Origin: Heterotrichella gracilis
Lineage: Eukaryota; Sar; Xanthophyceae; Tribonematales; Xanthonemataceae
Assembly (NCBI GenBank): GCA_032358255.1
Contig: JAULBX010013318.1
Location: forward strand, 248,001-312,000
DNA length: 64,000 nucleotides
Direction: 5' to 3'
Shown: one piece after another, positions 8,763 to 11,700 of the stretch
Layout of the letters: each line of letters begins with the position of its first letter
Position numbering within the stretch: the stretch's first letter is position 1
Notes under the pieces: model-generated
Seen by the model: the letters and a program-made list of their open reading frames with translations, nothing else
Told to the model about the DNA's origin: nothing
Databases searched by the model: none
Translations under genes and position numbers: made by a program

Positions 8763-11700
8763 ATGGGCGAGCCCGCAGCAGCCAAGACCTTCCAAGTCGT
8801 GGTTGCTGCCACACGGCAGCTGGGTATCGGCAAGGGCGGGCAACTGCCGTGGAAGCTCCCGGGGGACATGCACTACTTCAAGGAGCTCACCTCCAAAACC
8901 GCAGACCCCAACAAGGTGAACGCAGTGATAATGGGCAGGAAGACGTGGGAGTCGATCCCAGCCAAGTTCAGGCCCCTCCCAGGTCGCTTCAACATCATCC
9001 TCAGCAGGTCGATGCTGGGCGATGAGAACAACAGCTCTCTGGCCAACACAGCAGCCCCAGGAATCACCCCACCAGACAACGTCCACGTCTCCTCCACCCT
9101 CTCCAACGCTCTCAGCTTCCTTTCAGCCGGACAGCTCGCCGAGAAGGTCGAGAACGTGTTTGTAATCGGTGGAGGCCAGGTGTACAAGGACGCTGTTGCA
9201 TCCCCCAGTTGCAGCGCCATCCACCTTACTGCGGTGGAAGCAGACCTGGACTGCGACACCTTCTTCCCCGAGATCGACCCTGCCGTGTTCCGCCTGTGGT
9301 CCGCCTCAAGCCCCAAGGTGGATAAGGGCACCCGCTATGCCTTTCTGTGCTACACCAGGGCAGGGGCCCAGCAGCCAGCAGCGCTGCCTGCTGCCATCGC
9401 CTCTAGGCACGAGGAGTACCAGGTGGGTGCTTGCCACCCCTTCTGCATATGCATGCATACTGCGTATGGTGCTCTCAAGTGCCTGTAGCCCACCCCTGCA
9501 CCCCACCCCACCCCCACCAAACATCCACCTTTTGGGGCGCGGGCGCATTGCCGCTAGTTCCTGGCCATACCGCTGGAGTGCACTAGTCCACCAACAGCCC
9601 TTTCCCCGCTTGCATTTTCTGGGCACTGACAGTGGCCCGCCCTCCCATGTGCAGTACTTGGAGATGATTGACGACGTGATGCGCAACGGGCTGCTGCGCG
9701 GGGACCGCACCGGCACCGGCACCTTCTCCAAGTTTGGCACCTCCATGCGCTTCAACCTGCGCCACTCCTTCCCGCTGCTCACCACCAAGCGCGTGTTCTG
9801 GAGAGGTGACGCGGCACAAGTAAAGCAGCAGCAACGCACGAAGCGCATTTAGGACCCAATATGCGAGGGATGTAGTGCTATTGCACTGCATTGCTTGCTA
9901 TTGCATTGCATGCTATTGCAATGGAATGCAATGCAATGCCATTGGTCCACGCATTGCAACCTGGGCTAAGGGGTTGTGTGCCACCCTGCACCACTTCTTT
10001 GCCCGTGCGCCACAGCAGTGGCTTTTGTCTAGGGTTCTAGGGTTGCACTAAGGGTTTTTCCCCGCCGTAATCCTCCCCTTGTGCCCCCTAAGCTTAGGTG
10101 TGGCCGAGGAGCCGCTGTGGTTCATCAGCGGTGTTTAGGGTTTTAGTGTATTACTAAAGGGTTTTTCTTCACCATAATCCTCCCATTTCCCCCCTGCCCA
10201 GGTGTTGCCGAGGAGCTGCTGTGGTTCATCAGCGGTGTTTAGGGTTTTAGGGTTTACTAAAGGCCTTTCCACCATAATCCTCCCATTTCCCCCCTGCCCA
10301 GGTGTTGCCGAGGAGCTGCTGTGGTTCATCAGCGGTGTTTAGGGTTNNNNNNNNNNNNNNNNNNNNNNNNNNNNNNNNNNNNNNNNNNNNNNNNNNNNNN
10401 NNNNNNNNNNNNNNNNNNNNNNNNNNNNNNNNNNNNNNNNNNNNNNTTAGGGTTTACTAAAGGCCTTTCCACCATAATCCTCCCATTTCCCCCCTGCCCA
10501 GGTGTTGCCGAAGAGCTGCTGTGGTTCATCAGCGGTGTTTAGGGTTTTAGGGTTTACTAAAGGGCTTTCCACCATAATCCTCCCATTTCCCCCCTGCCCA
10601 GGTGTTGCCGAAGAGCTGCTGTGGTTCATCAGCGGGGACACCAATGCCCACACCCTGCAGGAGAAGGGCATCGGCATTTGGGATGGGAATGGGTCCAGGG
10701 AGTATCTGGACAGCATAGGACTGGGACACAGGTGCGGAGAAAGCGGTGACAGCCCTAGCAATTGCCTCCAACCCCTCCCAATCCTGCGCTTTCCCGCTGC
10801 CAAACTCTAGCTCAGGGTTTCCACCGGTGCCACGCAGGGAGGAGGGCGATTTGGGGCCTGTGTACGGCTTCCAATGGCGGCATTTCGGGGCCCCTTACAC
10901 AACCTGCCACGCGGACTACACTGGCAAGGGTGTGGACCAGCTGGCGGAGCTGATCCACAAGATCAAGACCAACCCCACCGACCGGCGCCTCATCCTGTCT
11001 GCCTGGAACCCCGCTGCCCTGCCAGACATGGCGCTGCCACCCTGCCACATGTTCTGCCAGGTGGGTGGCGGGAGGGGGTGCATGGGCCATGCGATTGGAT
11101 GCATGGGCCATGTGAATGGGTGCATGGGTCGTTTGATTGAGTGCACAAGCCATGTGATTAGATGCATGCATTGACTTGGGGCTAGGGATGTGATCATGTG
11201 TGACCCACCACCCACCATGTTGGAGCCACGTGGGTGGCGCCCTAAAGGTGGAGGAGGGAGGGGGGGGTGATCTAGGCCGAAAAAATCAACTCGTATGCCC
11301 TCAACGGTCACCAAATCTGCACGGCAAGTGGCCAAATAAACCCTTTAAATACTGTACAAGTCGCTAACCCTGCCCCCCTCCCCCCAGTTCTACGTGGCGG
11401 ATGGCGAGCTGTCCTGCCAGATGTACCAGCGCTCCTGCGACCTGGGCCTGGGGGTGCCCTTCAACATCGCAAGCTACTCCCTGCTCACATGCATGGTGGC
11501 GCAAGTGTGCGGGCTGCGGCCGGGCGACTTTGTGCACGTGCTGGGCGACGCGCACGTGTATGCAAACCACGTGGAGCCGCTCAAGGAGCAGCTGCTGAAT
11601 GCGCCCAGGCACTTGCCGGTGCGTGGGGGTGCATGGTGGGGCGGGGCGGGGCAGAGCATGCCTTGGACAGTTGAATTTGCACCCGTTCCATTGGCCCCTT

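What the first reader, a model, noticed from the sequence alone, without database searches (positions are those of the whole stretch)
10098..10640. Array of duplicated splice acceptors and exon starts inside the DHFR-TS gene
Intron 2 carries at least four upstream copies of the exon 3 edge (pyrimidine tract, acceptor, codons for [11 protein letters not shown]), on a 100-bp period, before the real exon. Every decoy keeps the acceptor and reading frame but runs into a stop two codons later in TTTAGGG-like sequence. Splicing to a decoy would truncate an essential enzyme, so either the last acceptor is strongly preferred or the array sets DHFR-TS output. The two 3'-most copies share a GAA codon, suggesting recent spread from the exon outward.
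Basis: seen in the sequence. Interest (0 to 1): 0.75.

Follow-up and report, generated by a model that had tools for sequence, protein, structure and literature searches.

The report
Decoy exon starts beside telomere DNA
In an unnamed plant-lineage microbe, probably a green alga, an essential gene carries several spare copies of one exon's start inside the preceding intron, and similar copies turn up in other genes, often next to stray telomere DNA, so this looks like a scar of DNA-break repair rather than a gene switch.

Summary
The array is real. DHFR-TS intron 2 holds four visible decoys of the exon 3 edge (acceptors 10098, 10202, 10302, 10502) before the true acceptor at 10602. Every visible decoy truncates the protein at 283 aa in TTTAGGG-like DNA.

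It is not a one-off. In 274 kb of the same genome I found 64 local direct-repeat clusters; 21 of 24 exon edges that I picked by eye have decoy copies (11 genes or ORFs; 10 acceptor-type, 11 donor-type). TTTAGGG is this genome's telomere repeat. Telomere-like loci are flanked by direct repeats at 19 of 71 (3 of 164 noncoding controls), and 7 of 20 interstitial tracts chosen by motif alone.

Best reading: a 'mirage' minisatellite, as known from amphioxus, seeded by repair of a staggered break that duplicated the exon edge and took in telomere repeats, then amplified. Decoys look close to neutral. A role in setting DHFR-TS output is not supported. Splicing is untested: no RNA was available. The telomere link seems new; it is shown statistically, not proven at DHFR-TS itself.

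The parts
8763..11991 (+). DHFR-TS gene, six exons: 8763-9422, 9655-9805, 10602-10731, 10838-11060, 11388-11618, 11881-11991; 501 aa
   Evidence: Splice-joined open frame; Pfam DHFR_1 and Thymidylat_synt; best solved match 8dae
9806..10601 (+). Intron 2, 796 bp, longest of the five (others 232, 106, 327, 262), holding the array
10026..10131 (+). Unit U1: degenerate telomere-like DNA, diverged decoy 1 (acceptor 10098)
10132..10235 (+). Unit U2: telomere-like DNA, pyrimidine tract, decoy 2 (acceptor 10202)
10236..10335 (+). Unit U3: telomere-like DNA, pyrimidine tract, decoy 3 (acceptor 10302)
10347..10446 (.). Gap of 100 N inside the array; flanks abut in register with the unit, so the number of hidden units is unknown
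10447..10535 (+). Unit U4 (cut by the gap): decoy 4 (acceptor 10502)
10536..10635 (+). Unit U5: the real acceptor (10602) and first 34 nt of exon 3, itself a member of the array

Best explanation
The array is a minisatellite straddling the intron 2 / exon 3 boundary (a 'mirage'). Step 1 (inferred): a staggered break or pair of nicks near the exon 3 edge was filled in and rejoined, which duplicated the pyrimidine tract, the acceptor and the first 34 nt of exon 3 and left telomere-type DNA (TTTAGGG, this genome's telomere repeat) at the join, added by telomerase or captured. Step 2 (inferred): unequal exchange between copies raised the number to at least five and made the 3' copies alike. Shown: the array; telomere-like DNA starting within two bases of the end of each decoy exon copy; the same kind of arrangement at other exon edges; direct repeats around telomere-like tracts far more often than around controls. 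In the cell (inferred) the copy that belongs to the complete exon is used, because the whole exon with its downstream donor is recognised; use of a decoy would meet a telomere-type stop and give a non-productive transcript. The decoys as such have no function.
For: Array anatomy. Recurrence: 64 direct-repeat clusters, all offsets 39-306 bp, against 5 inverted pairs at non-zero distance; 27 decoys at 21 of 24 picked edges, 11 genes or ORFs. TTTAGGG runs near the ends of contigs C70, C140 and C46. Telomere-like clusters with flanking direct repeats 31/106 against 73/1459 random positions, inverted 0/106; as collapsed loci without DHFR-TS 19/71 against 3/164 noncoding controls, Fisher P 1.4e-8. 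Motif-chosen tracts 7/20 against 24/830 controls, P 2.4e-6. Telomere-like bases 7.0% of spacers, 2.7% of copies, 2.4% of flanks. Differences of decoys spread over codon positions and intron part.
Against: 26 of 45 two-copy clusters have no telomere-like DNA in the spacer, so duplication also happens without it. In DHFR-TS the tract is short and degenerate and stands before every unit, so it could have been there first and been copied along. No relative with an empty site was available. Two of the 7 motif-chosen positives (L037, L040) are near the cut-off of 20. Edges were picked by eye; no annotation or RNA. The mild third-position excess and 24 of 27 kept AG/GT (P 0.088) do not exclude weak constraint.
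Confidence: 0.55

Rival explanations
1. Plain tandem duplication: duplications of about 100 bp arise all over this genome by slippage or paired-nick repair, and those across exon edges survive selection. Telomere-like DNA was in the introns already and was copied along, or marks fragile sites, and was not inserted at the break.
For: 26 of 45 two-copy clusters lack telomere-like DNA in the spacer; 16 of 64 cluster offsets lie at 90-110 bp; every visible DHFR-TS unit, the first included, begins with telomere-like DNA or abuts the gap.
Against: Telomere-like bases are denser in spacers (7.0%) than in copies (2.7%) or flanks (2.4%); telomere tracts chosen by motif alone are flanked by direct repeats in 7/20.
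Confidence: 0.32
2. Regulatory array: decoy acceptors act as poison splice sites that set DHFR-TS output.
For: Acceptors of decoys 2-4 match the real one over at least the last 32 intron bases, and all four visible decoys lead to a stop.
Against: Similar decoys sit in unrelated genes; decoys differ at codon positions 67/558, 46/558, 86/550 and intron part 104/728; likeness of the 3' copies is what array homogenisation gives.
Confidence: 0.06
3. Assembly artefact: copies were multiplied by mis-joining at the gap.
For: A 100-N gap equal to the period sits in the array; no other N run was seen in the sampled algal loci, so gap conventions could not be judged.
Against: Three decoys in one gap-free stretch; units differ by substitutions and indels; like arrays without gaps elsewhere.
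Confidence: 0.03
4. Decoys are cassette microexons: the 33-nt copies are spliced in and lengthen the protein.
For: A 33-nt insertion keeps the frame open through exon 3.
Against: The would-be donor is GTGTTT; 15 of 16 real donors collected have G at +5. The copy would repeat 11 residues inside a conserved stretch of thymidylate synthase.
Confidence: 0.02
5. The inserts are an introner-like or other transposable element with target duplications.
For: Insert between direct repeats is the usual look of a transposon insertion.
Against: 39 spacers compared: 23 matching pairs, all telomere-like or low-complexity; no shared family sequence.
Confidence: 0.02

Closest known systems
'Mirage' minisatellites of amphioxus (Adh3, globins BflGb6 and BflGb9; PMC3087553, passages read)
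   Same: Tandem repeats over an exon-intron boundary, units of up to 160 bp, 81-100% alike in BflGb6, carrying AG/GT; acceptor and donor sides both affected.
   Different: Here a plant-lineage genome, and telomere-type DNA between copies; the passages read do not mention telomere DNA. Length instability and normal splicing were seen there and could not be tested here.
Potato RdRp tandem duplication over an intron-exon boundary that made a new intron (PMC4974935, abstract and passages)
   Different: There a working donor made a new intron; here the would-be donor GTGTTT is poor and no new intron is shown.
Interstitial telomeric sequences inserted at repaired breaks in mammals (PMC7215372 and PMC2246262, passages)
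   Same: Telomere repeats inserted at break sites, sometimes with direct duplication of the target, explained by staggered breaks.
   Different: Duplication is rare there (3/66 horse, 6/130 rodent, 4/25 primate loci); here 7/20 tracts have flanking direct repeats, and arrays follow.
Staggered-break footprints in new introns of Daphnia (PMC4202315, abstract and passages)
   Same: Direct repeats inside or at the ends of introns read as staggered-break repair.
   Different: Repeats shared with the exon there are 4-12 bp; here median aligned copy 53 bp. 'telomer' has 0 occurrences in that paper's main text.
CST-guided Pol alpha-primase tandem duplications (PMC8355091, abstract and passages)
   Same: Gives a break-repair route to short tandem duplications by a telomere-maintenance complex.
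   Different: Shown in mouse and human cells at Cas9 breaks; its part here is conjecture.

Membership tests
Mirage minisatellite | Tandem repeat units span an exon-intron boundary | tested here: met
   Each visible unit holds tract, AG and first 34 nt of exon 3
Mirage minisatellite | Units carry splice dinucleotides that could act as cryptic sites | tested here: met
   AG kept in 4 of 4 visible DHFR-TS decoys
Mirage minisatellite | Homogenised inside the cluster, boundary units excluded | tested here: inconclusive
   U1 at the 5' boundary is diverged, but U5 at the 3' boundary is not
Mirage minisatellite | Copy number unstable among haplotypes or cells | not testable with these tools
   One assembly with a gap; no reads or second strain
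Mirage minisatellite | Normal splicing is not disturbed | not testable with these tools
   No RNA held
Interstitial telomeric sequence from break repair (DHFR-TS tract) | Insert is the organism's own telomere repeat | tested here: inconclusive
   TTTAGGG runs lie near contig ends; the DHFR-TS tract is short and degenerate
Interstitial telomeric sequence from break repair (DHFR-TS tract) | Flanked by direct duplication where the break was staggered | tested here: met
   Tracts at 10133-10164, 10237-10256 and 10537-10556 have flank scores 46, 67, 77; but an array gives this by itself
Interstitial telomeric sequence from break repair (DHFR-TS tract) | Empty site in relatives | not testable with these tools
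   no relatives held; scans of viral contigs and genome contigs with array motifs gave 0
Introner or transposable element | Inserts share a family sequence | tested here: not met
   39 spacers: only telomere-like or low-complexity matches
Intron gain by tandem duplication | A duplicated stretch crosses an intron-exon boundary | tested here: met
Intron gain by tandem duplication | A new intron is spliced between the copies | not testable with these tools
   Needs RNA; would-be donor GTGTTT unlike 15 of 16 real donors

The most novel reading that the evidence does not exclude
In this genome, telomere-repeat addition at staggered breaks is a main force shaping introns. Each event copies tens of bases of an exon edge with its splice site and leaves telomere DNA, which carries stops in all frames, beside it. 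Introns thereby fill with ready-made decoy splice sites and possible seeds of new introns, and the cell tolerates them because it recognises whole exons.
Probability: 0.42. Interest if true: 0.8.

Novelty: new variant of a known kind. Interest (0 to 1): 0.62.

Why it matters
Decoys 2-4 and the real exon share their acceptor over at least the last 32 intron bases, so the gene is a natural competition experiment in which position and the complete downstream exon differ. In both acceptor-type and donor-type cases the decoy lies nearer the opposite splice site, so a 'shortest intron' rule would choose the decoy at all 21 edges counted. RNA across them would show directly whether this organism recognises introns or exons. 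If the telomere link holds, it ties telomere biology to intron growth and gives a testable route by which spare splice sites arise.

Tried and rejected
Rejected: assembly artefact (diverged copies, gap-free stretches); introner or transposon; cassette microexon (poor donor); simple spread 'from the exon outward' (conflicting sites). Scans of viral contigs with the array core and genome contigs with a decoy end gave 0 matches each. Three further thymidylate-synthase-like genes (C674, C841, C760) have uninterrupted frames in DNA of 36%, 29% and 61.5% GC; I take them as bacterial admixture, not as spare algal copies, without a further test.

Rows dropped and results against my reading. Of 24 sampled 10-kb loci, L004 and L018 (about 35% GC, taken as bacterial) and L032 (all N) were left out, giving 21 loci plus the window, 274 kb. 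The two bacterial loci gave 1 direct and 2 inverted repeats in a first comparison in which the algal set gave 75 and 13. Of the 18 inverted pairs, 13 have offset 0 and were set apart. In one search self-overlap hits and hits under score 35 were dropped; 3 of 24 edges (two pyruvate kinase donors, p25-alpha) then had none. Edges were picked by eye, so no rate per intron is given. In one search DHFR-TS was left out of the telomere test. The 45 spacers include the DHFR-TS stretch with the N gap. 26 of 45 have no telomere-like DNA. Pfam found nothing for 6 of 6 ORFs tried beside motif-chosen tracts, so their exon status is by eye. Adaptin and syntaxin matches are under Pfam's curated cut-offs. Of 30 ORFs sent to Pfam near repeats, 14 had a match at E 0.01. 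One search had exons 3 and 4 one base short; one search is corrected.

Full report
WHAT IS THERE. The window lies in an unnamed 68.5-Mb assembly (C134:248001-312000), some contigs of which have 29-36% GC and which I take as bacterial. Positions 8763-11991 encode a bifunctional DHFR-TS of six exons, with Pfam DHFR_1 and Thymidylat_synt and a best solved match to 'DHFR-TS 1', entry 8dae (that this is the Arabidopsis enzyme is recalled). Intron 2 is 796 bp, the longest of five. In it a unit of about 100 bp is repeated: telomere-like DNA, pyrimidine tract, AG, first 34 nt of exon 3. Acceptors stand at 10098, 10202, 10302, 10502 (decoys) and 10602 (real). The 100-N gap at 10347-10446 has flanks that abut exactly in register with the unit, so five is the visible number and the true one is open.

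All four visible decoys keep AG and frame and end at the same stop, 283 aa. Acceptors of decoys 2-4 match the real one over at least the last 32 intron bases. Decoy 1 has P for L. GAA is shared by U4 and U5, but a C in the intron part by U3 and U4 and not U5, so simple outward spread is not shown. The stop comes with the telomere-like DNA: four TTTAGGG repeats hold a stop in each of six frames.

NOT A ONE-OFF. I sampled 24 loci of 10 kb and kept 21 plus the window, 274 kb. Self-comparison gave 89 direct and 18 inverted pairs. Collapsed, there were 64 direct clusters, every offset 39-306 bp although 1500 was allowed; 5 inverted pairs lay at non-zero distance. Clusters occur in 16 of 22 sources. 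Reading some of them showed exon edges copied into introns. Pfam supports host genes above the curated cut-off for a CAF1B/HIR1-type propeller, pyruvate kinase, serine carboxypeptidase, ribosomal L21, p25-alpha and a PHD plus SNF2 gene ('SHPRH-like' is recalled), and below it for an adaptin and a syntaxin. Of 24 edges typed in, all picked by eye from repeat clusters, 21 have at least one decoy at score 35 or more: 27 decoys, 10 acceptor and 11 donor edges, 11 genes or ORFs. 19 of the 64 clusters contain one of these edges; the other 45 were not classified.

ARE DECOYS CONSTRAINED? Differences between decoy and real exon parts by codon position are 67/558, 46/558 and 86/550, and 104/728 in the intron part: a mild third-position excess, as expected when only the real copy is constrained. 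24 of 27 keep AG or GT; drift alone gives that or more with P 0.088. The test is weak and biased by picking, but shows no clear sign that decoys are kept for use.

TELOMERE LINK. TTTAGGG runs lie near the ends of contigs C70, C140 and C46 (C46 length), and the four-repeat word has 101 + 108 matches, overlapping ones counted, against 0 for the reversed pattern. Telomere-type 7-mers are 3.8 to 8.2 times over expectation in the sample. With telomere bases masked, 31 of 106 telomere clusters have a direct repeat in their flanks against 73 of 1459 random positions; inverted 0 of 106 and 12 of 1459. As collapsed loci, without DHFR-TS and against noncoding controls: 19/71 versus 3/164, Fisher P 1.4e-8; inverted 0/71 and 1/164. 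As a test on loci chosen only by motif, 20 stretches around interstitial (TTTAGGG)4 were fetched: 7 of 20 are flanked by direct repeats, 0 of 20 by inverted ones, against 24 and 7 of 830 random positions. Two of the seven (L037, L040) are close to the cut-off. Telomere-like bases make up 7.0% of spacers, 2.7% of copies and 2.4% of flanks in 45 two-copy clusters, 19 of which have them in the spacer. L051 shows three edge-like copies with telomere repeats between them, two of them 77/79 alike, and L041 an acceptor-edge copy followed by telomere repeats; Pfam names neither gene.

MECHANISM. Shown: the copies, their places, and the concentration of telomere-like DNA between copies. Inferred: a staggered break is filled in, telomere repeats are added or captured, ends are joined, exchange among copies multiplies them. 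Mammalian interstitial telomeres give precedent, with target duplication at 3/66 horse loci, 6/130 rodent and 4/25 primate loci. CST-guided fill-in is a conceivable machine; that is conjecture. Splicing: the real edge belongs to the complete exon, decoys lie nearer the opposite splice site; since conserved genes carry such decoys, I infer that whole exons are recognised. Classic cis-competition experiments with duplicated splice sites (Reed and Maniatis 1986) are recalled, not read.

COMPARISON. In build the array is a 'mirage' minisatellite as in amphioxus (passages); the structural features tested are met, instability and splicing could not be tested. The potato RdRp duplication and staggered-break footprints in Daphnia introns are next of kin. 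The passages seen in PMC6549138 mention interstitial telomere repeats in Chlamydomonas and link them to chromosome fusion; the only hits in PMC11782384 for my terms were in its reference list. In my ten searches no listed title, abstract start or opened passage joins telomere DNA with exon-edge copies; the library holds open-licence papers only, lists were capped, and most listed papers were not opened.

VERDICT. Regulation is unlikely; a repair scar that recurs in the sampled genome is likely; the telomere origin is supported by statistics over the sample but not proven at DHFR-TS itself.

Noticed in passing
L010:7978-9872: A PHD plus SNF2 gene has decoy copies at four exon edges in a row: donor edges at 8207, 9119 and 9611 and an acceptor edge at 8931.
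   Followed up: partly
L051:120-631 (- strand): Three edge-like copies with a donor-like GTGCGT each, separated by TTTAGGG tracts; two copies 77/79 alike. A good young case for an empty-site test.
   Followed up: partly
window 30545-30739 and 59006-59129: Two other direct-repeat pairs in the window with telomere-like DNA in the spacer; genes not identified.
   Followed up: no
direct-repeat clusters across the 274-kb sample: Offsets pile up near 90-110 bp (16 of 64); no explanation was tested.
   Followed up: no
G000 contigs C1, C100, C674, C841: Stretches of 29-36% GC in the same assembly, probably bacterial companions.
   Followed up: no
window 3971-4100, 6785-6895, 53906-54058: Other minisatellites (GGTGGTGATGG-type; 48-bp CCAAGCGCCC-type).
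   Followed up: no
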